Shown here in pieces: positions 16,292-59,935 of a DNA stretch of 64,000 nt (positions are counted from its first letter, which is position 1; each line of letters starts with the position of its first letter). Source of the DNA: Apostichopus japonicus (lineage: Eukaryota; Echinodermata; Holothuroidea; Aspidochirotida; Stichopodidae); contig NC_092570.1 in the NCBI RefSeq assembly GCF_037975245.1, forward strand, positions 3,380,001-3,444,000, written 5' to 3'. The notes below the pieces were generated by a model, which saw only the letters and a program-made list of their open reading frames with translations, searched no databases and was not told the DNA's origin. The position numbers and the translations under genes were made by a program.

Positions 16292-18242
16292 TCAATGCTT
16301 GCCTGGTATTTTAGTTACCCTACGTATGACACAGAGAGTACGGGTTATTACTGCAGTCCCACGCCTATTACGTATTTCCAGTTTATACTCCCCCTCACGG
16401 TCGAAGGTGACATTCTTTATTGTACACTGGAACATCGTCATATCCGTCTTGTATTTCTTTTTCTTTATCCTGTGATTGTCTTTGTAAAGCTTGATGGTGA
16501 GTTTTCGCCTCCCTTTAATCCTCATCCGCCATTTCCAATCGTTTTCCTCATATATTTGATCAGAATTACCAAGGGGTGCTTGCGTTATTTTGGGAATTCC
16601 TGTAAGAAAAGGGATTGTTTGTCATCTATTTCTTGTTTATGTTGTACACTCTAACAGGCCCATGTGATATCATGTAAAATGTGGTTGATGTAGACGGGAA
16701 AGGGATAGGAGGGAGGGTTCGGGGGTGGGGGCGGTGGTGGAGGTTGGGGTGGATAACTACCTCAGTGTTAAGTTTTAATCCATCTAATGAAGATGAGTCG
16801 GTTCTTTGAAAAATAGAATTGTCAGTGTCGAAGGGATATTTAAAACAAAGAAGTTGACGAAGTATTATACTTCGAAACTGAAAAATAATGAATACTGTTT
16901 CATGAACTATCTTTATGTACACATTTAGCATGTCAGTCATCGTTAGTCAACTGCAAGATCTCTGAACCAATTGTTGCACAGCGTCCTCTATTTTGCTATA
17001 TAACTCTGATAGCACACACATAGCAGTTTACATGATATCTTGTAGTACATAATCACGTATGATCATCATTTTGCATGGACACCATTTCTATTCACTCGTT
17101 GTTGTTGTTTTGAAGATTGTATCGATGACATGAAGGAATATAAAAATGAAATTCCAATAGTTTGTACATTAGTATTTCATTTGACTTAATTTTACTGGCG
17201 TTTTTGCATCATATAGCCCATGGCAGTGGCCTAAGTAAACAATCGCAAATAATAATAATAATAATAATAATGCATCGCGTTTCTATAGCGCTCACTCCTA
17301 TAGACACTATGCAGTGGCGCTTTACAAAAACAACCACACCCAAAATCAGTACTAGTGAAATGCAACCCGGAAGAGATGTGTTTGATCTTAAAACTCGTGG
17401 AAGAATAACAAGACTGAATTTCAGGGGTATAAGCTGTTCCACTCTTTTGGACCTGCTACAGAAAAGCCCGATCACCGAAGGTCTTCGTCCTAGTTCTCGG
17501 AACAACGTAATTAGTTCCAGACCTAGGAGAAATTTGCTTTCAACGTCAACACGAGAATGTGTACCAATACTCGATTACCGTAGATTGGTCTAAACATTAT
17601 AAGGCGAAATAATAGCAGGGGCAGTGGACGTAGAAATGGCCTTTTTCCTAGGCATATGGTGTATTCTATCACTAATACCAATTGCGGTCGAGACAGTGCT
17701 TTAGATTCACTTGTTACTGTAGTGTATTAGGCGATATAGTTAACTGAACATCTAACAGTATTCACACTGTAGCTTAACGATGAATGAACAAATATTACCA
17801 TAACACACTGGGCAATGGGATTATATTTGTGTTGACCATTCAGAAATCGGATAAATTAAGGCAGACACGAGGGGGGGGGGGGGTTGTTGTTAGTCACATA
17901 AAATCAGTTCCCTTTTGCAAATACAAAATCTGAATAGGATTGCGAAAGCAATGCGAATGGCTATATTCCAAATGCCAACCCTCCCCCTTTCCTAACCTAA
18001 ATACCAGTCCTTTTCGTTTATTTTCTGTTAAAAACTTGTTAGTAGTAGATATCATAATCACTAATGAGATTATCCCTTCTCTCTCCCTGACCCTCTTTGA
18101 AACCTATCGAATATTTTCTGAGACGGTGCTGACAGTTAAGAAAAACGAAATTTATAAGTTTACCTTTCCAGTTTCGATTGGCATCAGTTCGATTATTGCT
18201 CCATGAATCATTCCAATTGATGTGAATATCTGATGGTTCCAT
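16292..18242 (-). CDS. IGT1: two-exon Ig-like protein, 128 aa
   Basis: Family not recognised; described from sequence. Exon 1 is 18242-18164 (26 codons plus 1 base; starts MEPSDIHINWNDSW) and exon 2 is 16599-16292, joined by a phase-1 intron of 1,564 bp with gtaaac and cttacag borders. Exon 2 resembles an I-set immunoglobulin domain: RIKGRRKLTIKLYKDN (strand and turn), then MTMFQCTIKNVTF, then REGEYKLEIRNRRG. The paired cysteines and core tryptophan of a classical Ig fold are missing. No signal peptide or membrane helix is visible, so a cytosolic product is likely. Compared with IGT2 and IGT3 it is strongly basic (IKKKKYK, RNRRG) and reads about ten codons past the stop position used in IGT3. 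A 5' noncoding exon cannot be excluded. Confidence 0.72.
17249..17530 (-). mobile_element. 3' end of a CR1/L2-like LINE with (ATT)n tail
   Basis: On the - strand one frame reads VPRTRTKTFGDRAF and, further on, SFKIKHISSGLHF, the usual extreme C-terminus of many CR1/L2-type ORF2 proteins. An internal stop follows GDRAF. It ends in gcgctatagaaacgcgatgc and an (ATT)n tail, seen as (aat)n at 17249-17270. Sister units A2 (near 21640) and A3 (near 27265) lack it, so it inserted in A1 only, inside the IGT1 intron. Confidence 0.72.
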
Positions 18243-18405
18243 TTTTTTTGTGCGGATAAAATTGTATTTTCCACAGGTACAGACAATGTTTCTAGTATTG
18301 AGTTGACGTTTGGTGTGTGCAAAATGCTCTGTAATATCTGCTGGTGTCGTCCAGTATTGAAATTGCCTGGTATTGATTCGTGTTTCTAACAATTGATTTA
18401 TGTTC

Positions 18406-18413
18406 TGACGTCA
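18406..18413. promoter_or_regulatory. CRE-type palindrome upstream of IGT1
   Basis: TGACGTCA, a consensus CREB/ATF bZIP site, lies 164 bp upstream of the IGT1 ATG inside a block kept in IGT1-3 (tatgaatatgtattacat on the - strand). Conservation of position in three copies supports a regulatory role; this is inference. Confidence 0.5.
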
Positions 18414-20827: not shown

Positions 20828-22346
20828 TCACTCTACGACGTAGAGAGTGCCTTTCGTCGTTACAGTCCCATTCATATTACTTATTTTCAGTTTATACTCC
20901 CCCTCATCGTAGAACGTGACATCATTAATTGTACACTGGAACATCGCCATTTTCGTACCGTAAGCCTGTTCCTTAATCTTCTCATTGTCTTTGTAAAGTC
21001 TGATGGTGATTGGTCGCCTCCCTTTAATCATAATCTTCCATTTCCAATCGTCTTCCTCATCTACTTCATCAGAATCACCAGGGGGTCCTTGTGCTATTTT
21101 GGGGATTCCTGTAAGAAAAGTGATGTTTTTCATCTATTTTTTTGTTTAATTTTAAGTACCGCACCAGCGCTGTTAATTTTTTCATCTAATGAAGATGAGT
21201 CGCTTCTTTGAAAAATAGAATAGTCAGTGTCGAAAGGATATTTAAAAAAGAAGTTGACGAAGAATTATACTGAAAAAGTAAAAAAATGAATACTGTTTCA
21301 TGACCTCTTTTTATGTACACATGTAGCATGTCAGATATCGATATTCAACTGCAAGATCTCTGAACCAATTATTGTTGCTCAGCGTCCTCTATTTTGCTAT
21401 ATAGCTATGAGAGCAGTTCATATGAGACGTTGTAATACAGAACATCATTTTTAATATGAACAACTTTTTGTATGGACAACATTTATGTTCACTCGTTGTT
21501 TTGAAAGTTGTATCGATGACATGAAGGAATATGAAAATGAGTTTCCTATAGTTTGTACATTGGTATTTCATTTGACTTATTCCGATCATTTTTCTGGCGT
21601 TTTTGCATCATATATGGCAGTGGCCTAATTAAACAATAATGAATTTGCTTTCAACGTCAACACGAGTATGTGTAACCACACTCGGCGACCGTAGACTGAT
21701 CTAAACATTAAAAGGTAAACAAAAACAAAAAACAAGAGGGGAAGTGGTCGTTGAAATCGCCTTTGCCTTAGCATGGTTTTAATGCATTCTATCAGTAATA
21801 GCATATTAACGTCGAGACGGTGCTTTAACTTCATTGGTTACCGTAGTGTATTAGGCGATATAGTGAACTGAACTTCTAACAGTATTCACACTGTAGCTTA
21901 ATCGACGAATAACCAAAAAATACCATAACACACTGGGCAATGGGAGTATATACGTGTTGACCATTCAGAAATCGGATAAAGGAAGGCAGGCAAGAGGGAA
22001 GAGGGAAATGTTTAGCCATCAAATCAGTTCCTTATTGCAAATACAAAATCTGTATAGGATTGCAAGAGCAATGCAAATGGCCATATTCCAAAATGCCACC
22101 CATCTCCCTTTCCTCACTTGAATGCCTGTCCTTTTCGTTAAGTTTTTATTGGATATGTGTAGTCAATATCATAATTATCACCAAAGAGATTATACCTTCT
22201 CACTCCCTGCCCCTTCTTTAACCCTATCGAATATTTTTGGAGACGGCGCTGGCAGTTAAAAAGCACGAAATCTGAGCTAAGAATTATGTATCACTCCGTC
22301 GAGGTGGTACGTCAATAGAAATAAATCAAAATGGCGTCAAGTATAG

Positions 22347-22416
<70 letters not shown>

Positions 22417-22519
22417 ACACTGCATCGAATTTTCGATTACCTCTCCAGTTTTGTTCGGCATCACTTCCACCATTGGTCCAAGAATTATACCAATTGAAGT
22501 GGATATCGGATGGTTCCAT
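20828..22519 (-). CDS. IGT2: two-exon Ig-like protein, 119 aa
   Basis: Exon 1 is 22519-22441 (MEPSDIHFNWYNSW at the start, 26 codons plus 1 base) and exon 2 is 21108-20828, with a phase-1 intron of 1,332 bp (gtaatc donor, cttacag acceptor). Exon 2 opens with an acidic linker (GDSDEVDEEDDWKWK), then RIKGRRP-type sequence as IKGRRPITIRLYKDN, MAMFQCTINDVTF, DEGEYKLKISNMNG and a final TLYVVE. The I-set-like strand order is visible; disulphide cysteines and a signal peptide are not. A 62-bp (TA)n tract sits in the intron just after the donor. Expression is unproven, but both exons are open and the splice phase matches all other copies. Confidence 0.72.
22347..22408. repeat. (TA)n microsatellite
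   Basis: About 60 bp of pure TA just inside the IGT2 intron, near the donor site. Absent at the equivalent spot of IGT1; IGT3 has only a short tatata run there. Confidence 0.95.
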
Positions 22520-26311: not shown

Positions 26312-28339
26312 TTACTCTAGGACATAGAGAGTGCGGTACGTTGTTACAATTCCATGCGTATTCATTATTTCCAGTTTATACTCCCCCTCATCGTCGAACG
26401 TGACCCACTTTATTGTACACTGGAACATCGTCATATCCGTATCGTAAGTCTGTTCCTTTATCACTTGATTGTCTTTGTAAAGCTTGATGGTGATTGGTCG
26501 CCTCCCTTTAATCCTCATCGTCCATTTCCAATCGTCTTCCTCATATACTTCGTCAAAACCATCATCACGGGGTGCTTGTGTTATTTTGGGTGATCCTGTA
26601 AGAAGAAAAAAAAAAGAAAAGAAATGTTTTATTCTTCTGTTTTTTGTTTATTACATGTGTACGCTCTAAGAGGCCAATGCGATATGGAAGATCATGTTAA
26701 CTGTTGTTATTGTAGACGGAAAAGGGAGAGCAGGGGAGGGGTTGATGGAGGTTGGGGTGGATAACTACCCCAGTGTTAAGTTTTAATCCATCTTATGAAG
26801 ATGAGTCGCTTCTTTGATATATAGAATAGTCAGTGTCGAAGGGATATTTAAAACAAAGAAGTTGACGAAGAAGTACACTTTAAAGCCGAAAACGTCAATG
26901 AATACTATTTTATTATTTATTTTTAAGTACACATGTACATTAGCATGTCAGTCATCGTTAGTCAACTGCAAGATCTCTGAACCAATTGTTGCACAGCGTC
27001 CTCTATTTTGCTTCATAGCTCTGGTAGCACACACAGAGCAGTTCATATGAGACCTTGTAGTACAGAATCACCTATGATATGAACATCATTTTGCATGGAC
27101 AACATTTCTGTTCACTCGTTGTTTTATGTTTTGAAAGTTGTATCGATGACATAAAGGAATATGAAATTGACATTTCCTTAGTTTGTACATAAGTTTTTCG
27201 TTTGACTTATTCCGATAATTTTACTGGCGTTTTTGCATCATATATGGCAGTGGTCTAAGTAAACAATCGCAAAAGTAGCTTCCACGTCAACACGAGTATG
27301 TGAACCACACTCGGCGATCGTAGATTGGTCTAAACATTATAACTTAAAAAGAACCAACAGCAGGGAAGTGGACGTTGAAATGGCCTTTTCCTAGGCATAT
27401 GGTGTAATTTATCAGTAATACCAAATCCCGACGAGACGATGCTTTAGATTCACTGGTTTCTGTAGTGTATTGAGGTGGCATATTCCTATTAGAGTCTATA
27501 TCAATCCGCCCGGAACCTTCAGAAACAGTGCTTAAATGCAGTAGAAGAACATATTTTTTTGATATGTTATCAACCAGGATCTGGTTTTTGTGGCTTGCAT
27601 ACTTAAGAGCATGAATGGAAGTACATGTGGTGCATAAATTGGTCAATTGAGACAAGTGTAGACCCCTTTAGGGCTCCCAGGAGCAGCGTGCAAAAATTGT
27701 TTACTAGTTAAGGGGTTTGTTTACAAGTGACGAAAATTTCAGGCTCTGATATCATGAAATCTTCACGGTCAAGGTATAAAAAAATGATAGTGCCATGAAA
27801 GGCCAACTTATCAGCTATCCAGTGATGGTTAGCGTTTAGCTAGTGAGGACTTCTATCTAGACATAGAGACCACATTACTTGTGCGATTTAGTGTGTAAGT
27901 TAATGGGGCCTTTAATAGACATGTGCTACCTTAGGAGACACAGTGAACTGAACGTCGAAAGCAATGCATATGGTCAATATGCCAAATGCCACCCCTCCCC
28001 CTTTCCTCACCTGAATGCCTGTCATTTCTGTTTTAATTTTCTTGAAATTGTTAGGTAGATATCATAAAAATCACCAAAGAGATAATCTCTTCTCCCTTCT
28101 ACTTCTACTTCTGGAGACGGCGCTGACGTTTAAGAAAGAGGATATTTGAGCTGAGAATTTTACCTCACTCTGTCGAGGTGGTACGTTAATTGAAATACAT
28201 AAAAATGGCGTCAAGTATATATATGTAACCTGGCATTACGTATTTGTTTACCTTTCCAGTTTCGTTCGGCATCACTTCGATAATCGCTCCAAGAATTATT
28301 CCAATTGAAGTATATCGGGACAATATCGGATGGTTCCAT
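26312..28339 (-). CDS. IGT3: two-exon Ig-like protein, 123 aa
   Basis: Exon 1 is 28339-28252 (29 codons plus 1 base) and exon 2 is 26595-26312, with a phase-1 intron of 1,656 bp (gtaaac donor, cttacag acceptor). Exon 1 starts MEPSDIVPIYFNWNNSW; the VPIY stretch is a 9-base in-frame insertion relative to IGT1 and IGT2. Exon 2 reads SPKITQAP, acidic DEVYEEDDWKW, RIKGRRPITIKLYKDN, MTMFQCTIKWVTF, DDEGEYKLEIMNTHG and TLYVLE, the clearest I-set-like pattern of the family. The last two thirds is acidic to neutral, unlike basic IGT1. A 460-bp MITE lies in the intron. There is no signal peptide, so it is probably intracellular. Confidence 0.75.
27472..27932. mobile_element. MITE-like insertion in the IGT3 intron, about 460 bp
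   Basis: Sister units read gtgtattagg across this point, but A3 has about 460 extra bp. The ends form an imperfect inverted repeat: left GAGGTGGCATATTCCTATTA against right (reverse complement) AAGGTAGCACATGTCTATTA, about 18 of the first 25 positions. No clear target duplication beyond 2 bp and no coding sequence. The superfamily is unknown. Confidence 0.55.
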
Positions 28340-32800: not shown

Positions 32801-33499
32801 AAATTTTGCAAAATAAGGTGTTTACCTTCAACTTATGCAATCTACTAACATTTTATAATAAACTTATACAATCTAAAATTCAGAGACAGTCTGGTATAAT
32901 CACAAACCTTAAGATATGCCCCTATAAAACACTGCAACGAATTCAGTCAATGTACAGTATAAAAACCATTTTTTTAATGATTTTTGTCATTAGTGGTCTA
33001 TCGTATGTTCCAGAAAATCAAATTAATTTGTTTTTTTTCACTCATTTGAACGAAAAATCTGTAGCAAATCCCGCTTTTTGGGGGCATTTTCCTTACACAC
33101 AAAAAATAGAAACAGGATAAAGAAAAGAGAGAGGGGTGAATGTGTAAATGTGCAAAATATTAACACCTTTTTAATCAACAGTGATGACGTCAAACCTCAG
33201 ATATATGCCCCACCCCCCACCCACTACCACCCACTCCCATCCACCACCACCGCGTGCCACCGCACCACTGTCTGTACCACTATTTGAAATTATGGATATT
33301 AAACTTTCCTATTTGGCGTTACGTATTTTAAGCGATACCTTAATAAAGAAAGCAAAACAACCCTCCCTCCTCCCCGAATAAAGGCCCTCGCGTCAAAAGG
33401 AATAACCGCTACCCAAGTGACGTCCAAACATGCCTATATACTACTTCCAATAGGCGATGGTGACTGTCTATCAATTGTTGTAAGATTGAGCACATCTCG

Positions 33500-34650
33500 C
33501 TAGTAATCATCTTCGATGTCAAAGTTTTCTTGAGCCTCCCCTTTAACGTTTGAAATGACCACCTCAAAGTCAGAAGGTAAATTGCGGCGTTTAAAATAGA
33601 TTTTCATCCAACTCTTCTCTTCTATCACTTCGTCGCAGTGCACAATATCCTGTCCTCTTCGTATAGTCAACTCCAATGGTCGTTCTCCACGAATACGTAG
33701 AAGTGCATGGTCTTGGTAGATCCTTGTTTTTTTGCTTAAAAATTGTGGGTCACCTGAATTACAGAAACATAAAAACCGATTAAAGATTTCAGACAAATAA
33801 TGATTAGTACTTGATGTATAGGTAGTGTGTATATTACAATACGCTTCATCGGAATCAGATTGCCCCCGCCACCTCCCCCCTCCCCGTTTACCGGCTCGGA
33901 ACTGGTGTACCGATGGGTCTAATGCGCCAATAGGTGCTGCTAATATGTGTTGCTGTAAGCTTAAAAGCGAGAGAGTTAAAGAGAAAACAAAGCTCGTGAC
34001 ACAGAGATTTATATAATTAGAGATAGGTAGAGAGGGAAGGGGGGGGGGGGGTGGAACGTCATAGTAGTATTATAACTTTATCTTAATGATTCCTCTCGAC
34101 ACAGGTCTTAATACCATCTCAAGTATTCTACAACCCCTTTCAGATTAGACAGCAAATCATACCACTAAGATAAAAGAATAAGAAAATAATGATGTGAGCA
34201 AACCGCCCTATAATAACCTGTCGCTGTAGTAACGCTAAAAATTGAGAGTTTATCACATAAATGTTTGGATGATATTAACTAACAATCCCTTGGCTATCTC
34301 TGCAGGACTATTTGAATTGAACTTTGAAATGATAACGCAGCTAATAAGTTGTATTGTATGACGATAAAATCGTTATATTCGCACACTGATACGATAAGCT
34401 ATAGTCCCTCGAAATGTATTCTAACATGGTAAGGTATAATGTGCATGACTATTGATAAGGCGTTCTATAACTTACACTGTTACACTGTGATAGGATAAAG
34501 ACCACGTACCATGCTGTTGAATAATAAACAAAATGATTCTTACTGGTTTTTACCTTTAGCTTGAGAAGTGTCAGCGTTATATCTTTTATTACTGCCATTA
34601 CGCCAGGTCCATTTAACTTTAATATCACTAGGTTCCACGTTGTGTGCCAT
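33500..34650 (-). CDS. IGT4: two-exon Ig-like protein, 116 aa
   Basis: Exon 1 is 34650-34554 (32 codons plus 1 base) and exon 2 is 33753-33500, with an intron of 800 bp in phase 1 (gtaaaa donor, aattcag acceptor). Exon 1 reads MAHNVEPSDIKVKWTWRNGS, carrying the family EPSDI and tryptophan spacing. Exon 2 keeps the core as LLRIRGERPLELTIRRGQD, then FKRRNLPSDFEVVISNVKG and an acidic end (NFDIEDDY), aligning with the RIKGRRP and DEGEYKLEI blocks of IGT1-3. No signal peptide. An acceptor-like ctgttttag lies 9 bp before the ATG and is in frame, so a further upstream exon is possible. Confidence 0.75.
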
Positions 34651-35052: not shown

Positions 35053-35058
35053 CAGCTG
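35053..35058. promoter_or_regulatory. Conserved CAGCTG block upstream of IGT4
   Basis: gattcgtCAGCTGattcaac lies 403 bp upstream of the IGT4 ATG, with tatatatca-type TATA-like sequence beside it. The same block occurs 402 bp upstream of IGT5 and at 51822. A bHLH (E-box) site is one reading; function is inferred from conservation. Confidence 0.4.
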
Positions 35059-41337: not shown

Positions 41338-41343
41338 CAGCTG
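41338..41343. promoter_or_regulatory. Conserved CAGCTG block upstream of IGT5
   Basis: Same block as at 35053, placed 402 bp upstream of the IGT5 ATG. Confidence 0.4.
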
Positions 41344-42470
41344 ATTCAACTCGCAATAATAGTGGTTATATATATTCAGGAAAAAACAAACAAAAGTAGT
41401 GTCTGAAATATGTTGGCGTGCGGGAAAATTGATGGAATAAAGAAATCGGTACTACTGAATAAATTTAAGGTTCGTTCGTCACCTCACCAGACAGCAGCGA
41501 TACATTAAATTTTCGATTTTCCTGAATGGGTATAAGGCAATATACGAGGAATGAACAAAATCGGTATTTTTGATCATAAAAAAGGAACATCCCTCACCTT
41601 ACCAACACAACAGATCGCCCACACCCCGTGTCCTATAAATGAGACCGACAGCCGATGAGCTTTAAGTCCTTTTACTCAACTCGTCTACCAAACTATATCA
41701 TGAAAATCTTTCCAAAATCTTCGACTTAAGTATGTAAAAAAAAACTACAGGTAAACACCAGTCGACATCTCTTTGAATATCAGCTATACTAATTTTCAAC
41801 GACTTGTACAGTTTCGGTAACACTATTATGCCCCCGCCATCTACCAATCATTTATGAAATCACTGTATAGAAAACATCGGAGGGGATTCCAAAATCCATC
41901 CGATGATAAATGGTATATAGGGAAATGAACCTTTATGGGTATGGAATGGAAAATAATATAAATGAGATGTGTGGCTGTGTGGTCTTTAAATGTCTTCCTA
42001 TTTGGCGGGTGGGGGAGGTGTCCTCCCCGTTAAATAAATTAAAATCGTAGAGGTCAATGCATTCTGAGGCATATTCAGACTATAAATTAGGTTTAGAACA
42101 TCTTACAGGATTTCCATATTAGTGAAGCAGCCTTTTATATTCCACTATAACCTTTGACTGGGGTAAATGCGGGTGACGAAGTAACGAATAGTGTACATAG
42201 AAGAACAAAATATGTCATTTTTCAGTATATTGTGATGTACCAAAGAAAAAGAAAAAGAAAATGAAGGTAGAAGTTATGATTGACAAGGCAAGAATTTGTG
42301 CTTACATTTCATTCCTATAACTAATAATCAACCACGGAACATGTATAACTTGTTCTCAGCCCATTTACAAAGATCATGTCAACTATAAGCGCACTCATGT
42401 TTTGTTATTTATTTACCTTTTTTTTTTGTATGACTTTAAATAAAGGAAGATAACTTTCACAGGGGGTTAA

Positions 42471-43898: not shown

Positions 43899-45181
43899 TC
43901 ATACTGTAAATCGAGCAACCACAGTAGCTCCATCGACTGCCTTGACATATACAAAGTAAGTACCAGGGCTACAATTTCCCACGCGGATAACGCTCCCAGG
44001 TTGTCTGTATTCGAAAGATCGGATGATTCGTCTATAAATGTCGCGTATGGTCACATTTAATGGTCTCTTCCCTCCAATCCTTAAGATATATTCCTTTGTG
44101 CGTGGATCGTAACTTGGGTCTGAAAGGAATTTCGCGGTGCCTATATCATTATGTTGAAACGAAAAAATGAGAAATACGTGTTTTTGCTTTGTTTTCTTTC
44201 GCTTGGGTCAATGAGTGGGGTACTCGTATCGGCGTAAAGACCAATGCCGAGAAATGCATCAATCAATGTTCAGAGATAAATCTATTTAGTATACCCCTCC
44301 TTACCGGTAAATTTCTATTCAACATCTCAGAAAAATTTGTAAGTCTGGATTCTAATATTTTTTAATAAAAGGGGAAAAAACGTTGGAAAATCTGATCCTT
44401 TTTCATAAGTGAAGGTTTGAAAAGAATAGAGCATTAAGTAACCCTGCCATGAACCATCAAGATCCTTGCTTTAGGAAAAAAAGACATGTGAGGTACAGTT
44501 TGATATGGTTCCACACGCGTGTACAGAAGCGGTGGAAGCGGGTACGATCAGGTTGGTTGGAGGGTGGGTGACTTCGAAGGGATTAGGGACAACCGAAAAC
44601 TCACCCCAGAAAGTACCCACAAATTGCAGTCCTGGAATATTTTTTTGAACAAAACGGCACAATTCAATTATCTTTTCTTTCTTTTGTTGTTGTTATTTTC
44701 CAACGACATGGCTTTTTTCATTACAGTTTTGCAAGTTTCTCAACATCAATAAAATGATCGTTTCCATTACGGAAATGGAAAAAGGGTAGTTTATATTCTC
44801 GAAAAAGGGCTATGCCATTACTAGGCCCCCAAATATATATATATATATATTTTTTAGAACATATATTCTGTTTATTGGTTGCCTTCACCCCCCCCCCCAC
44901 CCCCGTCAAAGCATTTCACCTCCTTAAAAAAGTAGTCTAGCAACGCCCTGTTTCGAATTCGTTAAAATACACAAATATCTAGCGTGCAGTTTGACTTTAC
45001 AATATAGCCAAATTTATGTTTACTCTGGCCGTATATTTGGCGCGTCAAAAATGCTGTAAGGACGTTACGGTGGTATAGGTTCCATTAATTGCAGCCTACC
45101 ATATACTGTATTGGCGTCCGAGTTACTTTGAGGCGTTCCGGAATGTTCCCATTTTAATGTGATATCCGAGGGTTCATTCAT
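43899..45181 (-). CDS. IGT6: two-exon Ig-like protein, 107 aa
   Basis: Exon 1 is 45181-45100 (27 codons plus 1 base; MNEPSDITLKWEHSGTPQSN) and exon 2 is 44140-43899, with a 959-bp phase-1 intron (gtaggc donor, gatatag acceptor with a weak pyrimidine tract). Exon 2 keeps a strand core as YILRIGGKRPLNVTIRDIYR, then NCSPGTYFVYVKAVDG and ends VARFTV. It bridges the classes: the GKRPLNVTI block is like IGT4-5, while the CSPGTY block and exon 1 are like IGT7-8. No signal peptide is visible. The weak acceptor makes exon 2 slightly less certain than in the other copies. Confidence 0.68.
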
Positions 45182-45477: not shown

Positions 45478-46912
45478 TAATAACGACTATACCAGATTTT
45501 TTTTAATTAATTAATTACTTCATTAATTATTACAATAATCAGTAAATGTTTTTAGTAAAATCGGTTAATTGTTCAATTTTAAATGTAAACTTTCGGTATT
45601 TTCGTCCGTGTGATAACTGTTAATCACGAGGTTTGCTTAAAGTCCTACTTGTATTCCTCGTTCGCCATAGCGTGTAAGAAGTGCTAATACAACCGGCTCG
45701 ATGATCACCATTTATGGAGAGCGCCACCATTTTTCGCAATTGTTATCACCTCGATTTTATCAGCTAATAGTCATTAGGGTAATATTATATGATAAAAACC
45801 TGTGGTGTTGTGACGAAAACGTATGTGAGGGACTTGGAACATTCTACACTACAACAATAATGGAAAAAGGGGAACAGTTTATTTTGTAATCTCGATTATT
45901 CGATGTAGCTCTCAGGCTATTTCTGGGACTGAGAACTTCAGTCCGCTTCTAAATAATGAGTAGGCCTTAAACAAGGCGAGTTAATTCAACTTGCCTTTTA
46001 TTAATAAACGTTAAACTGCAACGGTACAAATAACACACACTAAGAATAACAATTCAAGATAGTTATTTGTTATTGGTAGAACTATCAAAACAAGTCTAAC
46101 TACTAGTAATAATGTACACACTAAAATATGAACATTTGCCTATTTTTATTACAAGGATATATACATCTTCCATACAATTTCAAAACTATTTTCGGAGTAC
46201 AGTTGTACAGTTTCGATAACACCATGATGCACCCCCCATCTACCAATTATGCGAAGTTATTTTATCAAAGAGAGGCAATAGGTTAGGCTATGTTTACATG
46301 TTCTAAATATCATTGACTTGACACAGTATAAGTTGCCGACTACTAATAACCTTTATGGTTGCAATCATTTATGAAATCTCTGTAACGAATAAAAAAAAAC
46401 AAGCGGGATTCCCAAATCAATCCGACTGATAGAAGGTATAGGGGCTTGAACCTTAATGGGTATGGAATGGAAAATAATGCAAATGAGATGTGTGGCTGTG
46501 TGGTCTTTAAATGTCTTCCTATGTTGCTGGTAGTGGTGGTGGTGGTGGTGGTGGGGGGGGGGAGGTGTCCTCCCCATTAAATAGAATTAAACTAGTAGGA
46601 TCAATGCATACTGAGGCATATTAAGACTATGCATTAAGTCTTTTTTTAGGTCTAATCTAAAAATTGTGAAAATAAATACTTTGGAATTTGGAAATCCCTC
46701 AACTGAACGTTAACCTCCCCGATCGGGGGTAGGGGATAGAGGAAGGGGGAATCAAATAGCACACTTTAAGTTTGATCAATCAATGCATATTTGATGATAC
46801 ACTTTGGGAAAGTTGGAGTGGAAATGGTTGACTGTGGAACTCGAACGAGGATTAGCTTTATGCGGGTGTAGGTCACGGAACCACGTATGTTATGGACAGT
46901 GTTGGGTATGGG

Positions 46913-47310
46913 GGCGTTGTGGTCAAGTGGTTAAGGCAGTGAACCGGTGATCTAAGGATTACAAGTCCTAGTCCTGGCCAGATCATTGCGTTGTGTCCTT
47001 GGGCAAGGCACTTTATCTCCATTGCCTCTCTTCACCCAGGTGTATAAATGGGGACTTGCGAAGTGACTTGTAAATATAGTTTACGCCGGTTTGTGGCTGC
47101 ACCCTATGGGAAGTCCCCCGGGGGACACGTGGTTGTGGTGCACTGCGGTGCCCCAGGAGAGATTGGTTGAATTGCGCACACTTTGGTGTGTAGGTGTGAC
47201 AAGTTACCAATGACCAAGGCTAAGTTGTACATGTTATGGTACATTTAGCGCATTTGAACAATTTCTGTTTATTTTGGCGCTATATAAATGTCTTCTGATT
47301 GATTGATTGA
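46913..47310 (+). mobile_element. tRNA-derived SINE, copy 2 (398 bp)
   Basis: Same family as 35971-36301, with the same flanking tatggg. The B box has decayed (tcctagtcc in place of ttcgagtcc). It holds a middle segment (gtttgtggctgcacc to ggtgcactgcggtgcc) missing from copy 1. It moved by segmental duplication, not by fresh insertion, because all copies share the same target site. Confidence 0.88.
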
Positions 47311-48138
47311 TATGGGTAGTTTTTTAATTCAATTGACAGATGTAATTTAATTTTTGTGGTATTGTGTTTTATTTCTCAGAGTTGGTAGAAAGGAAACAAA
47401 AAGGGTATATTTTACCTGACAACTATATGACCATGCCACTACATCTATATGACATGACAGGCATTGGCGACGGATAAGGGTTAAATCGAGGGAGGGGTGG
47501 ATGGGTGGGTTAATGGATGGGGAACGAACTTTGATTCGATTTGAGGTAGAACGAGTAAACTCACCCCAAACGTCCATACAAAATATAACCTTTGTGCATT
47601 CTCTGCTATACTTTCCAGTATTTGCAAATGCTTTTTCAATAACCCAAGGTGTACGTTATCTTATTTGTAGCAAAAGGTCATTTTACAGTTTTTTTTTAAA
47701 ACTTCTCAGCACAAATTATAAGTGGGGGGTCAATGGGGGAATTTGAAGACATTAATTTTTAAAGAAATCGGATGGTGAGGGGTGCGGGGCGGGGGGGGGG
47801 GGGGTACACTGTACAGTTTTCCATGTTAGTGAGACAAACTTTTATATTCCTCTATAAACTATGACTTGGTAAAGATGGGTGACGATAGGAACGAAGAGGG
47901 TATACATAGAAAAAACAAGATATGCCATTTTTTCAGTTTATTGTTAAGTACCAAACAACAACAAAAGCAGAAGCAAAAGAATAATTAACGTATAAGTAAT
48001 GATTTACAAGTCAGCCTCGGTGTTTTTGCTTACATTTTATTCCTATAACAGAGTATCAACCTCTAAACATTCATAACCTGTTATTATTTTTTCTTGTATG
48101 ACTTAAAACAAAGGAAGAAAACTTTCACCTGGGGTTAA

Positions 48139-48158
48139 TGACGTAGTTTATGACGTAG
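48139..48158 (+). promoter_or_regulatory. Paired TGACGTAG sites, spacer copy 3
   Basis: Two TGACGTAG octamers 12 bp apart, followed by ttatatataatatg, as in the other spacers. Confidence 0.4.
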
Positions 48159-49748
48159 TCTAATCGTCCCCATCCTGTTGTAAGAGGATATTATATATAA
48201 TATGTTAAGTTTTGTATTTCTCTATGATATCTTAAAGCTTGATCTTTCTTTTGTTTTCAGATCATATTCGGACTTCTCTTACCACAAGTTAAGGGGACGA
48301 TTATTTATACCTCATATTGAATTTTGTTTTAAACATTTGTTTAGGAAAAGAGAAAAATGAAAGCTATAATATTGATAAAGTCAATAAAATATTCGTTTAC
48401 TTTCCTCATAATCCATAATTCATTTACTATCGAACATTCTTTTCGTAAATTCGTTTTACTGTAGAAGATTGTTTGTCAAGAGTCTGTCCTTAGTCCTTGT
48501 TATATGATTTTAAGCAATATGAAATATTGATATCAAATATGATATTCCACCCCCTTATAATCTACCTTAGTATTAACACCCCAATGATACCCAACACCAC
48601 CATTCCCAGGCGAGGAGAATGTTAAAGTAGAAGACAATGCATTACAGATCTTCGAAATAAAAGACGATTAAAACTTGCATTAACCAATGTAACAGTATTA
48701 AACAATTAAAAAAACCAAAGAATTAATTTAACGGTAAAATTCATGTTTTTCCACCATCCCTTCCTTCATTAATTACATGTCCAACCATCTATGAATCATA
48801 ATTTGGATATTAGCATATCTTCAGTTGGAGAAAGACTCTACTGACTACAGTCCGCCCCCCCCCCACCGCCGTGCCAGACTATACACCACACTATGGGAAA
48901 TATGCAATTAATAACAATGACTAATTATTTAATGATTAGTGAAGAGTAAACTTTACTAAAGCAAGCTTGAAAATACTCAACGTTTTGCAACAGTTAAATT
49001 TAATGCGAAGTTTATTTAGTGCGAATTGTCCCCATGCCTTGTCTCCGTGAATCGGGTCTTGTCACAATACATGTAGGAAGAAGTTGGATTCAAAGAATGA
49101 TGCAACAATTGCACTGTAAGAGAAATATATATGAATATGGCGTGAATATAAGAATGCGACCTTCAGGCAAGAAAACTAAAAGCACTTATAAAAAAAGACC
49201 ATTTGTCTCCGAGGTTCGAAGTTATACATCAATGTTATTATAATGATAGAATAATATTATATTATGAAGCAAAATTGTGTATTATTATTGATAGTTAGGA
49301 TATTTAAACAGATTTATCTTCCCTTGATATGGGAGGATAGGGGAGGGGGAGGAGTGGGATGGGCAAGGCAATAAAGCACCAGAGGGGTAACTAATTCTTA
49401 CCCTAGGATTTGAAGAGCAAATATGTGGTAATGCAATATTAGGACGAATAATGTGAAAATGTAACTATATAAATAATTTAAAAATTGGACTAGGTATGGG
49501 AAGAGTTATTTCAACTAGATATAATAGGGGTTATTAAGAGTAAATATAGTATAGGCCCATCAGCAATGGGTAGGTGGTATAAGTAATTGGGGGAGGGGGG
49601 GGGGGTGATTGCCACACAGATGAACTATGTTTTGAAGGCTCCTAGCAAAAGAGTTATTGTTATATTCCAACACCAAGTTGCTGATCTGATTTTTTATGGA
49701 ATTCGTCATGCCATCCTCAAGACAAAGCGAGAAATTTTGCATTCATAC

Positions 49749-50979
49749 TCATGCAGGTACTGTGACTAAAGCCCGCACACTAGTTCCGTTGTTGACATCT
49801 ACAGAGTAAGTACCAGGTTTACAGTTTCTCAAGTGACAAATACTCCGAGAATCGTTAAGTGTGTGACCTTTGATGAATTTTCTATCTATGTATATACCCA
49901 CCCTTGATGGTCTCTTCCCTGAGTTCCTGGTGTTTTCATATTTTTTACCTGAAACGAGAAAAAGGAAAACCATATTTTTGCTTTGTTTTCTGTCGCTTTA
50001 GGTCAATGGGTGGGGTTGAGCAGGTATTAGACGGGTACTAGTATCGGCGTAACAGACAATGTCAATAAATGCAATAATAAATGTTCAGTGATAAATCTAT
50101 TTAGTATACCCCTCCTCACCAGTTAAGTTCTATTCAACTTCTCAGAAAAAGTTGTAAGACTGGCATTCTTACAGTTTGGAATAACCGTTGGAAGAAACAA
50201 ATCCTTTTTTTATAATTGAAGGTTTGCAAAGATGAAAGCGTTTAATAACCCTTCCATTTACCATCAAGAACTTTGTTTTAGGAAAAAGGTACCTGTGAGG
50301 TACAGTTTGGTATGGTTCCACACGTGTACAGAGACGGTGGGAGAGGGTACGATCAGGGTGTTTGGAGAGTGGGGTGACTTCGAAGGGCTGTGAGATAACC
50401 GACAACTCACCCTAGAACGTATACCAACAAATTGCAGTCCTGGAATATTTTTTTGAACAAAACGGCACAATTCAATTATCTTTTCTTTCTTTTGTTGTTG
50501 TTATTTTCCAACGAAGAGTTTTTTTCATTACAGTTTTGCAAGTTTCTCAACATCAATAAAATGAACGTGTCCATTACCAAAATGGAAAAGGGTAGTTTTC
50601 ATTCTCGAAAATGGCTACGCCATTACTAGGCCCCCGAACATATATAGAATTTTAGGAATAAATTCTGCTTATTACGTGCCTCCAACCCCCCCCCCCCCAG
50701 GAAAGCATTGCGCCTCCCTAAAATAGTAGTCTAGCTACGCCCCTGTTTCGAATTCGTTATAATACGAAAGCATCTAGCGTGCAGTTTGCCTTTACAATAT
50801 AGCTAAACTTATGTTTACAATTGCCGTATATCCGGCTCGTCAAAAATTCTGTGAAATCCTCGTTACGGTGGTATATGATCAATTAATTGCAGCCTACCGC
50901 TGTTTGTACTGGTCTCCGGGTAATGTCCATGCGTTCCGGAATGACTCCATGTTATTGAAATATTGGAGGGTTCATTCAT
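49749..50979 (-). CDS. IGT7: two-exon Ig-like protein, 93 aa
   Basis: Exon 1 is 50979-50898 (MNEPSNISITWSHSGTHGHY, 27 codons plus 1 base) and exon 2 is 49948-49749, with a 949-bp phase-1 intron (gtaggc donor, tcgtttcag acceptor). Exon 2 is shorter than in other classes (65 residues): it lacks the LRIRG-type strand and goes from KKYENTRNSGKRPSRVGIYI to CHLRNCKPGTYSVDVNNG and a final VTVPA. Two cysteines sit close together, one at each end of CHLRNC. It has no signal peptide. Its sister IGT8 differs by about 15 coding changes, nearly all altering residues, while the shared intron differs at about 1-2 percent of sites. Confidence 0.75.
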
Positions 50980-51208
50980 GATGTAAGTATTCTACAACGT
51001 TTTGTCCTCCTAAAAATCAACGACTGGAGATATCTTGACTAGCTTTCGTGATCGAGGCTGTGTCACTATATTTCAACGACCGACTTCACCAGATGTATTA
51101 TAGACAAGGGATATGAATTGACACATAATTTAAGACCAGTTATGAATATATGAAATCTTCCAAAGTTAGCAAAATAGTGTTATTAAAAATGTCCATAAAC
51201 ATACTGTC

Positions 51209-54400: not shown

Positions 54401-54480
54401 CAGTTGGAGTAAGACTCTAGTGACTACGACTACAACCCCCACCCCAACACCCACCCCACACCCGACTGTACTAACTAATT
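51430..54480. pseudogene. Orphan upstream region of an IGT4/5-class gene (body lost)
   Basis: At 51430 the sequence switches from the IGT6-8 upstream type (gtgctaata) to the region that starts about 13 bp upstream of the IGT5 ATG (aaaacagctaaatgtatc, as at 40951). It then follows 40951-43000 and beyond, including the CAGCTG block at 51822. Neither exon is present. At about 54480 it switches again to IGT6-type upstream sequence. This looks like the scar of unequal exchange. Confidence 0.65.
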
Positions 54481-55855
54481 TCTCTATTAATTATTAGAAT
54501 AATCAGTAAATGTTTAGAGTAAAATCGGTTAATTTTTCAATTTTAAATGTAAAGTTTCGGTATTTTCGTCTGTGTGATAACTGTAAATCACCGGCTTTGC
54601 TTATAGTCCTGCTTGTATTCCTCGTTGGCTATAGCGTGTAAGACCGGCTCGTTGATCACCATTTATGGAGAGCGCCACCATTTTCCGCAATTGTTATCAC
54701 CTCGATTTTATCAGCTTATTGTCATTAGGGTATTATTGGATTAGAAAAACCTGTGGTATCGTGACGAAAACGCATGTGAGGGACTTGGAAAATTCTAGAA
54801 CTACAACAAAACTGTAAAAAAAGGAACAGTTTATCTTTTAATCTCGATTATTCGATGTAGCTCTCAGGCTATTTCTGGGACTGAGAACTTCAGTCCGCTT
54901 CTAAATAATGAGTAGGCCTTAAACAAGGCGCGTAAATTCAACTTGCCTTTTATTAATAAACGTTAAACTGTAACGGTACAAATAACACACACTAAGAATA
55001 ACAATTCAAGATAGTTATTTGTTATTGGTAGAACTATCAAAACTTGTCTAACTACTAGTAATAATGTACACACACAAATATGAACATTTGCCTATTCTTA
55101 TTACAAGGATATATACATCTTCCATACAATTTCAAAACTATTTTCGGAGTACAGTTGTACAGTTTCGATAACACCATGATGCACCCCCCATCTACCAATT
55201 ATGCGAAGTTATTTTATCAAAGAGAGGCATAAGGTTAGGCTATGTTTACATGTTCTAAATATCATTGACTTGACACAGTATAAGTTGCCGACTACTAATA
55301 ACCTTTATGGTTGCAATCATTTATGAAATCTCTGTAACGAATAAAAAAGAAGAAGCGGGATTCCCAAATCAATCCGACTGATAGAAGGTATACTGAGGGG
55401 CTTGAACCTTAATGGGTATGGAATGGAAAATAATACAAATGAGAGGTGTGGCTGTGTGGTCTTTAAATGTCTTCCTATGTAGCTGGTGGTGGTGGTGGTG
55501 GGGGGGGGGTGTCCTCCCCATTGAATAGAATTAAACTAGTAGGATCAATGCATACTGAGGTATATTAAGACTATGCATTAAGTCTTTTTTTAGGTCTAAT
55601 CTAAAAATTGTGAAAATAAATACTTTGGAATTTGGAAATCCCTCAACTGAACGTTAACCTCCCCGATCGGGGTAGTGGATAGAGGAAGGGGGAATCAAAT
55701 AGCACACTTTAAGCTTGATCAATCAATGCATATTTGATGATACACTTTGGGAAAGTTGGAGTGGAAATGGTTGACTGTGGAACTCGAACGAGGATTAGCT
55801 TTATGCGGGTGTAGGTCACGGAACCACGTATGTTATGGACAGTGTTGGGTATGGG

Positions 55856-56256
55856 GGCGTTGTGGTCAAGTGGTTAAGGCAGTGAACCGGTGATCTAAGG
55901 ATTACAGGTCCTAGTCCTGGCCAGATCATTCCGTTGTGTCCTTGGTCAAGGCACTTTATCTCCATTGCCTCTCTTCACCCAGGTGTATGAATGGGGACTT
56001 GCGAAGTAACTTGTAAATATAGTTGCGTGCGCCGGTTTGTGGCTGCACCATATGGGAAGTCCCCCGGGGACACGTGGTTGTGGTGCACTGCGGTGCCCCA
56101 GGAGAGATTGGTTGAATTGCGCACACTTTGGTGTGTAGGTGTGACAAGTTACCAATGACCAAGGATAGGGTTGTACACGTTATGGTACATTTAGCGCATT
56201 TGAACAATTTCTGTTTATTTTAGCACTACATAAATGTTTTCTGATTGATTGATTGA
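55856..56256 (+). mobile_element. tRNA-derived SINE, copy 3 (401 bp)
   Basis: Duplicate of copy 2 within the segmental repeat, flanked by tatggg on both sides. It shares the decayed tcctagtcc B box and the gtttgtggctgcacc segment. Confidence 0.88.
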
Positions 56257-57085
56257 TATGGGTAGTTTTTTAATTCAATTGACAGATATAATTTAATTTT
56301 TGTGGTATTGTGTTTTATTTCTCAGAGTTGGTAGACAGGAAACAAAAAGGGTATATTTTACCTGACAACTATATGACCATGCCACTACATCTATATGACA
56401 TGACAGGCATTGGCGACGGATAAGGGTTAAATCGAGGGAGGGGTGGATGGGTGGGTTAATGGATGGGAAACGAACTTTGATTCGATTTGAGGCAGAAAAA
56501 GTAAACTCACCTCAAACGTCCCTACAAAATATAACCTTTGTGCATTCTCTGCTATACTTTCCAGTATTTGCAAATGCTTTTTCAATAACCCAAGGTGTAC
56601 GTTATCTTATTTGTAGCAAAAGGTCATTTTACAGCTTTTTTTAAAAACTTCTCAGCACAAATTATAAGTGGGGGTCAATGGGGGAATTTGAAGACATTAA
56701 TTTTTAAAGAAATCGGATGGTGAGGGGTGCGGGGCGGGGGGGGGGGGGGTACACTGTACAGTTTTCCATGTTAGTGAGACAAACTTTTATATTCCTCTAT
56801 AAACTATGACTTGGTAAAGATGGGTGACGAAGGAACGAAGAGGGTATACATAGAAAAACAAGATATGCAATTTTTTAAGTTTATTGTTAAGTACCAAAAA
56901 AAAAAAGCAGAAGCAAAAGAATAATTAACGAATAACGTATTAGTAATGATTTACAAGGCAGCCTCGGTGTTTGTGCTCACATTTCATTCCTATATCAGAG
57001 TATCAACCTCTTAACATGTATAACTTGTTATTTATTTTTCTTGTATGACTTAAAACAGAGGAAGAAAACTTTCACCTGGGGTTAA

Positions 57086-57105
57086 TGACGTAGTTTATGA
57101 CGTAG
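57086..57105 (+). promoter_or_regulatory. Paired TGACGTAG sites, spacer copy 4
   Basis: TGACGTAG at 57086-57093 and 57098-57105, followed by ttatatataag, as in the other spacers. Confidence 0.4.
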
Positions 57106-58702
57106 TCTAATCGTCCCAATCCTGTTGTAAGAGGATCTTATATATAAGCTGTTAAGTTTTGTAATTCTCGATGGTATCGTAAAGTTTGATCTTTCTTTTG
57201 TTTTCAGATCATATTTCGGGCTTCTTTTATCACAAGTTAAGGGGACGATTATTTATACCTCATATTGAATTTTGTTTTAAACATTTGTTTAGGAAAAGAG
57301 AAAAATGAAAGCTATAATATTGATAAAGTCAATAAAATATTCGTTTACTTTCCTCATCATAATCCATACTTCATTTACCATCGAACATTCTTTTCGTAAA
57401 TTCATTTTACTGTAGAGGATTGTTTGTCAAGAGTCTGTCCTTAGTCCATGTTATATGATTTTGAGCAATATGAAATATTGATATCAAATATGATATTCCA
57501 CCCCCTTATAATCTACCTTAGTATTAACACCCCAATGATACTCAACACCACCATTCCCAGGCGAGAGAATATTAAAGTAGAAGACAATGCATTATAGATC
57601 TCCGAAACAAAAGACGGTTAAAACTTGCATTAACCAATGTAACAGTATTAAACAATTAAAAAACCAAAGAATTAATTTAACGGTAAAATTTATGTTTTTC
57701 CAACCTCCCTTCCTTCATTAACTACATGTCCAACCATCTATGAATCATAATTTGCATATTAGCATATCTTCAGTTGGAGAAAGACTTTACTGACTACAGC
57801 CCCCCCCTCCCTCCCCACCGCCTCACCCGACTCTACACCACACTATGGGAAATATGCAATTCATAACAATGACTAATTAATTTAATGATTAGTGAAGAGT
57901 TAACTTTACTAAAGCAAGCTTGAAAATACTCAACGTTTTGCAACAGTTACATTTAATGCGAAGTTTATTTAGTGCGAATTGTCCCCATGCCTTGTCTCCG
58001 TGAATCGGTCCTTGTCACAATACATAGGAAGAAGTTGGATTCAAAGAATGGTGCACCAATAAGACTGTAAGAGAAATATATATATAAATATGGCGTGAAT
58101 ATAAGAATGCGACCTTCAGGCAAGAAAACTAAAAGCACTTATAAAAAAGACCATTTGTCTCCGAGGTTCGAAGTTATACATCAATGTTATTATAATGATA
58201 AAATAATATTATATTATAAAGCAAAATTGTGTATTATTATTGATAGTTAGGATATTTAAACAGATTTATCTTCCCTTGATATGGGAGGATAGGGGAGGAG
58301 AGGGAGGATTGGGATTGGCAAGGCAATAAAGCACCAGAGGGGTAACTAATTCTTACCCTAGGATTTGAAGAGCAAATATGTGGTAAAACAATATTAGGAC
58401 GAATAATGTGAAAATGTAACTATATAAATAATTTAAAAATTGGACTAGGTATAGGAAGAGTCATTTCAACTAGATATAATAGGGATTATTAAGAGAAAAT
58501 ATAGTATGAGCCCATCAGCAATGGGTAGTTCGTGTAATTAATTGTTGGGGGGGGGGGGTGATTGCAACAGAGATGAACTATGTTTTGAAGGCTCCTAGCA
58601 AAAGAGTTATTGTTATATTCCAACACCGAGTTGCTGATCTGATTTTTTTATGGAATTCTTCATGCCATCATCAAGACAAGGCGAGAAATTTTGCATTCAT
58701 AC

Positions 58703-59935
58703 TCATGCAGGTACTGTGACTAAAGCCCGCACACTAGTTCCGTTGTTGACATCTACAGAGTAAGTACCAGGTTTACAGTTTCTCAAGTGACAAATACTCC
58801 GAGAATCGTTAAGTGTGTGACCTTTGATGAATTTTCTATCTAAGTATATACCCACACTTGATGGTGTCTTCTCTGAGTTCCTGGTGTTTTCCATTTTTTT
58901 ACCTGAAACGAGAAAAAGGAAAACCATATTTTTGCTTTGTTTTCTGTCGCTTTAGGTCAATGGGTGGGGTTGAGCAGGTATTAGACGGGTACTAGTATCG
59001 GCGTAACAGACAATACCAATAAATGCAATAATAAATGTTCAGTGATAAATCTATTTAGTATACCCTCTTCACCAGTTAACTTCTATTCAACTTCTCAGAA
59101 ACAGTTGTAAGACTGGAATTCTTACAGTTTGGAATAACCGTTGGAAGACACAAATCCTTTTTTATAATTGAAGGTTTGCAAAGATGAAAGCGTTTAATAA
59201 CCCTTCCATTTACCATCAAGAACTTTGTTTTAGGAATAAGGTACCTGTGAGGTACAGTTGGTATGGTTCCACACGTGTATACAGAGACGGTGGGAGAGGG
59301 TACGATCAGGGTGTTTGGAGAGTGGGGTGACTTCGAAGGGCTGTGAGATAACCTACAACTCACCCTAGAGCGTATACCAACAAATTGCAGTCCTGGAATA
59401 ATTTTTTTGAACAAAACGGCACAATTCAATTATCTTTTTTTTCTTTTGTTGTTGTTATTTTCCAACGAAGGGCTTTTTTCATTACAGTTTTGCAAGTTTC
59501 TCAACATCAATAAAATGAACGTTTCCATTACCAAAATGGAAAAGGGTAGTTTTCGTTCTCGAAAATGGCTACGCCATTACTAGGCCCCCGAACATATATA
59601 GATTTTTAGAAATAAATTCTGCTTATTACGTGCCTCTCCCCCCCCCCCCCCCACAGGAAAGCATTGCGCCGCCCTAAAATAGTAGTCTAGCTTCGCCCCT
59701 GTTTCGAATTTGTTATAATACGAAAGCATCTAGCGTGCAGTTTGCCTTTACAATATAGCTTAACTTATGTTTACAATTGCCGTATATCCGGCTCGTCAAA
59801 AATTCTGTGAAATCCTCGTTACGGTGGTATATGATCAATTAATTGCAGCCTACCGGTGTTTGGACTGGTCTCCGGGTAATTTCCAGGCGTTCCGGAATGA
59901 CTCCATGTTGTTGAAGTATCCGAGGGTTCATTCAT
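58703..59935 (-). CDS. IGT8: two-exon Ig-like protein, 93 aa
   Basis: Exon 1 is 59935-59854 (MNEPSDTSTTWSHSGTPGNY) and exon 2 is 58902-58703, with a 951-bp phase-1 intron. It is the sister of IGT7. The second half of exon 2 (from DRKFIKGHTLNDSRS to VTVPA) is identical in protein, while the first half and exon 1 differ at many residues (for example K-Y to K-M, G to E, R to T, R to S, I to L). The clustering of changes at the N-terminal side suggests a variable face next to a fixed one. No signal peptide or membrane segment is seen. Confidence 0.75.

What the first reader, a model, noticed from the sequence alone, without database searches (positions are those of the whole stretch)
16292..59935. 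Tandem array of at least eight small two-exon genes with an Ig-like core and no signal peptide
Eight copies on the - strand share one layout: a short first exon with M(x)0-4-EPSDI and spaced tryptophans, a phase-1 intron, and a last exon with an RIKGRRPITI / DEGEYKLEI-type strand pattern. All eight have open frames and matching splice phase despite large sequence divergence, which argues for function. I know of no named family with this layout. Tandem two-exon, fast-changing genes with microsatellite-rich spacers recall immune-effector arrays such as sea urchin SpTransformer (185/333), but the encoded proteins are unrelated and lack a leader.
Basis: partly seen in the sequence, partly recalled or inferred. 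Interest (0 to 1): 0.88.

Follow-up and report, generated by a model that had tools for sequence, protein, structure and literature searches.

The report
Fast-evolving intracellular single-Ig gene cluster
A sea-cucumber chromosome appears to carry a private cluster of small genes, each for a single muscle-protein-type immunoglobulin domain without an export signal, whose surfaces seem to change about as fast as unconstrained DNA while their reading frames stay intact, a pattern that would fit an arms race inside the cell but still needs experimental proof.

Summary
In detail: eight two-exon genes on the minus strand at 16292-59935, with open frames, GT-AG boundaries and a phase-1 intron. Assembly size points to Apostichopus japonicus (inference). 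Five more relatives, n1-n5, lie just right of the window: 13 genes in about 75 kb. Whole-genome searches with eight members found, besides this cluster, only two chance-level hits. The core is an I-set immunoglobulin domain: 2 of 4 full-length window proteins pass Pfam's cut-off; the 13-member profile reaches single titin domains at about 1e-3. All 13 ATGs have an upstream in-frame stop and no leader-like stretch. Coding exceeds intron divergence in 5 of 8 pairs, equals it in 1 and is lower in 2, yet frames stay open against neutral expectation. Codon tests favour positively selected sites; this weakens when multi-nucleotide changes are allowed and vanishes when such codons are dropped. Best reading: cytosolic single-Ig binding proteins diversified by tandem duplication, perhaps for defence. 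Expression, partners and function are untested.

The parts
18164..18242 (-). g1 exon 1 (MEPSDIHINW...)
   Evidence: ATG, donor AAG|GTAAAC, phase 1
16292..16599 (-). g1 exon 2, I-set-like domain with extended tail
   Evidence: acceptor TTACAG|G; stop of g2/g3 lost, tail VTKIPGKH
22441..22519 (-). g2 exon 1
20828..21108 (-). g2 exon 2, I-set domain
   Evidence: full-length g2 Pfam I-set 32.5 bits, cut-off 23.7
28252..28339 (-). g3 exon 1
26312..26595 (-). g3 exon 2, I-set domain
   Evidence: full-length g3 Pfam I-set 28.7 bits, cut-off 23.7
34554..34650 (-). g4 exon 1
   Evidence: in-frame stop 12 nt upstream
33500..33753 (-). g4 exon 2, I-set-like domain
40840..40936 (-). g5 exon 1
   Evidence: in-frame stop 12 nt upstream
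39811..40067 (-). g5 exon 2, I-set-like domain
45100..45181 (-). g6 exon 1
   Evidence: in-frame stop 15 nt upstream
43899..44140 (-). g6 exon 2, I-set-like domain
   Evidence: weak acceptor
50898..50979 (-). g7 exon 1
   Evidence: in-frame stop 15 nt upstream
49749..49948 (-). g7 exon 2, shortened Ig-like domain
59854..59935 (-). g8 exon 1
   Evidence: in-frame stop 15 nt upstream
58703..58902 (-). g8 exon 2, shortened Ig-like domain
45508..51096 (.). duplicated segment carrying g7; pairs with 54472-60052 carrying g8, 94.7% identical
54472..60052 (.). duplicated segment carrying g8; pairs with 45508-51096
32926..35577 (.). duplicated segment carrying g4; pairs with 39210-41851 carrying g5, 84.8%
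39210..41851 (.). duplicated segment carrying g5; pairs with 32926-35577
18406..18413 (-). TGACGTCA (CRE-like) in the 5' flank of g1; the same at 22700-22707 (g2) and 28522-28529 (g3)
   Evidence: regulatory role inferred only

Best explanation
A tandem family of 13 genes at one locus (eight in the window), each encoding a small soluble protein: a short variable N-terminal segment (exon 1) followed by one I-set immunoglobulin domain (exon 2). Shown by sequence: gene structure of the window genes, homology to I-set domains, tandem segmental duplication, intact frames, coding divergence near or above that of introns in most pairs. Inferred: with no leader and without the canonical B-F cysteine pair, the domain folds and works in the cytosol, like titin-type Ig domains, on a hydrophobic core. 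Inferred: each copy is a binding module whose exposed surface and charge are retuned after duplication while the core is kept. Least certain: the partners change under an arms race, most likely with pathogen molecules or their defence targets in sea-cucumber cells. I put about 0.75 on 'expressed cytosolic I-set binding proteins with diversifying surfaces' and about 0.4 on defence as the purpose.
For: Eight consistent gene models and five flanking relatives. I-set homology: Pfam 9.3e-8 and 1.4e-6 for g2 and g3; 13-member profile to single-domain titin chains 9.1e-4 and 0.001 and to multi-domain titin 2e-19, the latter summing several domains. Low-confidence seven-strand model whose first Foldseek hits are an obscurin Ig1/titin M10 complex and titin M4, telokin seventh, all weak. 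By my reading of the alignments the F-strand cysteine position is L or V in 8 of 8 window genes and the B-strand position hydrophobic in 6 of 8. Upstream in-frame stop and no in-frame upstream ATG before it in 13 of 13; highest N-terminal 9-residue hydropathy 1.12. Frames kept against neutral simulation. M0 omega 1.69 (p 0.007); M2a over M1a p 2e-7; without g6 p 3.4e-6 and 0 of 63 simulated nulls reach it; with a free multi-nucleotide rate p 0.0018 and 0.006. Coding vs intron: g6-g7 0.346 vs 0.159, g6-g8 0.356 vs 0.156, g7-g8 0.053 vs 0.025, g1-g2 0.215 vs 0.173, n1-n2 0.210 vs 0.152. In g1-g3 exon 2, 33 of 63 polar but 9 of 30 hydrophobic positions vary (p 0.035); 32 of 54 variable sites of the whole protein change charge; net charge spans +16 to -7 over g1-g8. 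Single locus apart from two chance-level hits.
Against: No transcript, protein or expression data. Four pairs tested singly show no significant N excess (p 0.12-0.63); g4-g5 and g7-g8 pooled p 0.03. n1-n2 omega is 0.99. Dropping every codon with two or more differing bases leaves omega 1.5-1.56, not significant, M2a p 0.27-0.43. In the g6 pairs dS (0.32-0.46) also exceeds intron divergence (0.17), so exon segment exchange or misalignment contributes. Coding divergence equals intron in g4-g5 (0.103 vs 0.116) and is lower in g1-g3 and g2-g3 (0.179 vs 0.338; 0.153 vs 0.243), whose intron alignments seem to include non-homologous stretches. g7 and g8 have T, not a hydrophobic residue, at the B-strand position and two cysteines each. 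n1-n4 have a donor-like site right after the Ig exon, so they may be longer proteins. Pfam finds nothing in g4, g6 or the n1-n4 Ig exons; g1, g5, g7, g8 and n5 were not scanned. Model confidence is low (pLDDT 60.5; best Foldseek E 0.089, TM under 0.4).
Confidence: 0.5

Rival explanations
1. Telokin/APEG-1-like cytoskeletal or contractile regulators: single I-set proteins tuned to muscle or body-wall filaments, expanded for physiological reasons rather than defence.
For: The closest sequences and (weakly) folds are titin, obscurin and telokin domains; APEG-1 and telokin are also small single-Ig muscle proteins (PMC1352370 passages).
Against: Muscle I-set domains are usually conserved (recalled); here coding divergence is near or above intron level in most pairs, with large charge swings. 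Most of the 150 best I-set matches of the genome are on C23, none on C10.
Confidence: 0.2
2. Relaxed constraint: redundant young duplicates drifting towards pseudogenes, with omega near 1 by default.
For: In M2a about 77-81% of sites fall in the omega 1 class; no significant omega above 1 once multi-nucleotide codons are dropped; n1-n2 omega 0.99; one lost stop (g1) and a weak acceptor (g6).
Against: Frames intact where neutral simulation gives 0 to 0.183 per pair; hydrophobic positions vary less than polar ones in g1-g3 (p 0.035); the exon-1 motif is recognisable across subfamilies.
Confidence: 0.2
3. Leaderless but exported immune effectors, acting outside the cell on microbes like SpTransformer proteins.
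For: Tandem small two-exon genes in an echinoderm; one member strongly basic (g1 net +16).
Against: No leader in any of 13; the canonical cysteine pair is absent in the window genes; other members are neutral or acidic.
Confidence: 0.1

Closest known systems
I-set Ig domains of titin, obscurin and smooth-muscle MLCK (telokin)
   Same: Sequence homology to the I-set profile and to titin; hydrophobic residues in place of the F-strand cysteine in 8 of 8 and the B-strand cysteine in 6 of 8 window genes (reading)
   Different: Stand-alone tandem genes with their own variable exon 1, on another contig from most strong I-set matches, diverging near intron rate
Telokin and APEG-1 (small single-Ig proteins)
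   Same: One I-set domain with a short N-terminal extension; no disulfide found in the APEG-1 structure (PMC1352370 passages)
   Different: [quoted passage not shown] telokin also has core cysteines that could pair); the window genes have their own ATG, intron and stop, in 13 tandem copies
SpTransformer (Sp185/333) genes of the purple sea urchin
   Same: Echinoderm cluster of small two-exon genes with segmental tandem duplications (PMC3091723 passages)
   Different: There exon 1 encodes the leader, GA microsatellites flank the genes, introns are generally more diverse; here a different protein, no leader, and coding above intron divergence in 5 of 8 pairs
Viperid three-finger toxin genes (accelerated exon segment switching)
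   Same: Similar introns with divergent exon segments and a kept fold (PMC2474615 passages), compare g6 vs g7/g8
   Different: Unrelated secreted disulfide-rich toxins; only the mode of change is compared

Membership tests
I-set immunoglobulin domain (PF07679) | Profile match above curated cut-off | tested here: met
   Met by g2 (32.5 bits) and g3 (28.7) vs 23.7, not by g4 and g6 (4 window proteins tested); n1-n4 Ig exons no hit; g1, g5, g7, g8, n5 not scanned; family profile to single titin domains about 1e-3
I-set immunoglobulin domain (PF07679) | Two-sheet Ig sandwich | tested here: inconclusive
   seven strands predicted but pLDDT 60.5; best Foldseek E 0.089
Telokin/APEG-1-type small single-Ig proteins | Single I-set domain with short N-terminal extension and no leader | tested here: met
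   (for window genes; n1-n4 may have a further exon)
Telokin/APEG-1-type small single-Ig proteins | Part of a larger muscle kinase gene | tested here: inconclusive
   own ATG, intron and stop; no kinase recognised by eye among flank ORFs of 140 aa or more; no kinase profile search of the flanks was run
SpTransformer | Exon 1 encodes a leader | tested here: not met
   no N-terminal hydrophobic stretch in 13 of 13
SpTransformer | GA microsatellites flanking the genes | tested here: not met
   8 tandem-repeat rows of score 60 or more in 14000-64000, none a GA array
SpTransformer | Induction in immune cells on challenge | not testable with these tools
   no expression data

The most novel reading that the evidence does not exclude
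A germline-diversified set of cytosolic immunoglobulin-domain recognition proteins: an invertebrate that uses free I-set domains inside cells as a repertoire of binders against pathogen molecules, diversified by tandem duplication and exon-focused change.
Probability: 0.22. Interest if true: 0.85.

Novelty: new variant of a known kind. Interest (0 to 1): 0.55.

Why it matters
Diversified immunoglobulin repertoires are usually extracellular (recalled). A compact single-locus cluster of leaderless Ig proteins whose coding sequence diverges about as fast as introns, with frames kept, would give a testable case of intracellular Ig-based recognition in an invertebrate, in a farmed and well-studied sea cucumber. 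Even if the purpose is not immune, it is an example of exon-focused divergence on a kept fold.

Tried and rejected
Rejected: chance open frames; for g2-g8, internal exons of an unrelated gene (upstream in-frame stops, own stop codons), though only RNA can exclude it; SpTransformer membership. Open: whether g1 uses a donor-like AGG|GTAACT near its 3' end; a third exon of n1-n4, for which the conserved n1/n2 stretch gave no clear exon. Rfam gave one marginal tRNA hit (29.9 vs cut-off 29) and ARAGORN none. NCBIfam, given four Ig exons, gave one sub-threshold match. The own-genome I-set search scored the best 150 of 904 candidates and lists none in the array, so it names no parent gene. Paper searches that showed no description of this family, listings only: 4 papers; none; 10 of 872 listed; 12 of 85 listed; passages of the Holothuria glaberrima preprint PMC13228809, where 'immunoglobulin', 'Ig domain' and 'I-set' occur zero times. 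Other papers seen as passages only: PMC10344927, PMC1352370, PMC3091723, PMC2474615; some searches were listings. The reversed-ORF control failed (stale files) and was redone; there the g exon-1 profile reaches E 0.11 on reversed ORFs, so its own hits to n exon 1 (E 0.15 to 2.1) are not significant. The 13-row protein tree had 3 of 10 well-supported inner branches, and the g/n split was weak. The site list rests on an alignment that misplaced the g6 exon boundary and is not used; the null fits used one starting point, the observed fits two.
Full report
Observation. The eight reported copies are real. Exact models: g1 18242-18164 + 16599-16292; g2 22519-22441 + 21108-20828; g3 28339-28252 + 26595-26312; g4 34650-34554 + 33753-33500; g5 40936-40840 + 40067-39811; g6 45181-45100 + 44140-43899; g7 50979-50898 + 49948-49749; g8 59935-59854 + 58902-58703. 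All are on the minus strand with GT-AG introns in phase 1. By a simple weight matrix the donors lie in the 93rd-98th percentile of GT sites; by pyrimidine count seven of eight acceptors lie at the 87th percentile of AG sites or above, g6 at 47.5. The copies sit in segmental duplications and fall into three subfamilies.

Origin and extent. The window is C10:3380001-3444000 of an assembly of 671,581,487 bases in 35 contigs. The published A. japonicus assembly is 671.6 Mb in 34 scaffolds (passages of PMC10344927); the species is inferred from size and contig number. I fetched 80 kb to the left and 120 kb to the right. Five further genes, n1-n5, lie at C10 3.447-3.471 Mb on the same strand, with an exon 1 of the same type (LEPGDI, IETSDV, EPGDL) and an Ig exon. 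Phase-1 junctions were checked by translation for n1 and n2 and read by eye for n3-n5. A 13-member profile, searched in ORFs of 264 kb, lists its 13 exon-1 and 13 exon-2 training ORFs and one other hit at E 2.4. Cross-tests: the n exon-1 profile finds six g exon-1 ORFs next after its training set (best 1.1e-4), and the n exon-2 profile finds g1 (1.1e-3), g3 and g2 next; reversed controls reach 2 and 1.6. In the other direction the g exon-1 profile gives n4, n1, n2 and n3 only E 0.15-2.1 (reversed control 0.11) and the g exon-2 profile only n1 at 1.2, none significant. The n exon-1 candidates had been chosen partly by likeness to the window motif, so that test is not fully independent. Profile against profile, g and n Ig exons align at E 8.6e-8, probability 94%. 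Whole-genome protein searches with the Ig exons of g3, g5, g6, g7, n1, n3, n4 and n5 return the cluster and two chance-level hits (E 0.78 and 0.83); each search scores only its best candidates.

What the proteins are. Of four full-length window proteins scanned, g2 and g3 pass the Pfam I-set cut-off, g4 and g6 give nothing; four n Ig exons give nothing. The profiles reach titin in the PDB at 3.2e-8 (8 members) and 2e-19 (13 members); these values sum weak matches over several titin domains, and single-domain titin chains score 9.1e-4 and 0.001, telokin's parent kinase 0.013. AlphaFold2 on the eight-row alignment gives seven strands at low confidence (pLDDT 60.5); of 542 Foldseek matches none has E under 0.001, and the first (E 0.09-0.25, TM under 0.4) include an obscurin Ig1/titin complex, titin M4 and telokin. 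By my reading of the alignments the F-strand cysteine position is L or V in 8 of 8 window genes, the B-strand position M, I or L in 6 of 8 and T in g7 and g8; each protein keeps one or two other cysteines. Intracellular Ig domains rely on a hydrophobic core (PMC1352370 passages). In all 13 genes an in-frame stop precedes the ATG within 171 nt with no in-frame ATG between, and no N-terminus has a leader-like hydrophobic stretch. An upstream exon spliced just before the ATG is not formally excluded for g4/g5, where TTTTAG ends 9 nt before the ATG.

How they evolve. Of eight pairs compared, coding divergence exceeds intron divergence in five: g6-g7 0.346 vs 0.159, g6-g8 0.356 vs 0.156, g7-g8 0.053 vs 0.025 (p 0.02), g1-g2 0.215 vs 0.173 (p 0.04), n1-n2 0.210 vs 0.152 (p 0.009). 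It is equal in g4-g5 (0.103 vs 0.116) and lower in g2-g3 (0.153 vs 0.243) and g1-g3 (0.179 vs 0.338), whose intron alignments seem to include non-homologous stretches. Codon models on g1-g3, g4-g5 and g6-g8 give one-ratio omega 1.69 (p 0.007) and M2a over M1a p 2e-7; without g6 p 3.4e-6, with 0 of 63 simulated nulls reaching it. Allowing multi-nucleotide changes gives p 0.0018 and 0.006; dropping codons with two or more differences removes significance (omega 1.5-1.56). Pairs tested singly are not significant (p 0.12-0.63); g4-g5 and g7-g8 pooled give 0.03; n1-n2 omega is 0.99. In g6 comparisons dS itself exceeds intron divergence, so segment exchange between paralogues, or misalignment, adds to point change. 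Against this rate, frames stay open where simulation predicts disruption, and in g1-g3 exon 2 hydrophobic positions vary less (9 of 30) than polar ones (33 of 63; p 0.035). Together: a constrained core with a fast surface; positive selection is likely but not proven.

Mechanism. Most likely each gene makes a small cytosolic Ig module that binds a partner through its variable exposed surface; duplication and exon-focused change give variants. Shown: structure, homology, duplication, rates. Inferred: cytosolic location, binding role. Speculative: defence. The DED plus P-loop ATPase gene about 66 kb beyond n5 on the same strand (DED 2.6e-17) is neighbourhood evidence only.

Novelty. I found no description of this family in the paper searches listed, in a library that lacks most subscription papers. 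No other species' genome could be searched, so how old or widespread the family is remains unknown. The fold family is known; leaderless single I-set domains as an independent, diversifying tandem family is a new variant of a known kind.

Noticed in passing
L032, C10 about 3.537-3.543 Mb (right of window): Gene on the same strand with an N-terminal death-effector domain (Pfam DED 2.6e-17) and a P-loop ATPase segment (STAND/NB-ARC matches below cut-off), NLR/APAF1-like, about 66 kb beyond n5.
   Followed up: partly
window 51431-52333: 94.6% copy of the 5' flank of g5 (40947-41851), ending about 10 nt short of where its ATG would be, now upstream of g7: a chimeric junction between two subfamily flanks.
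   Followed up: no
window 18406-18413, 22700-22707, 28522-28529: TGACGTCA (CRE-like) box in a conserved stretch 171-190 nt upstream of the g1-g3 ATGs.
   Followed up: no
L033, C10 3,545,013-3,549,934: Two long ORFs of a gypsy-like LTR element (zinc-knuckle gag, pol); label from reading the ORFs by eye. Observed only.
   Followed up: no
window 9662-10222: Three tandem copies of a 187-bp unit.
   Followed up: no
n1-n4 Ig exons, C10 3.447-3.466 Mb: Donor-like site directly after the Ig exon (CAG|GTAAGA, AAG|GTAAGA, CAG|GTTAGC, GGG|GTGCGT), suggesting a third exon absent from g2-g8.
   Followed up: partly
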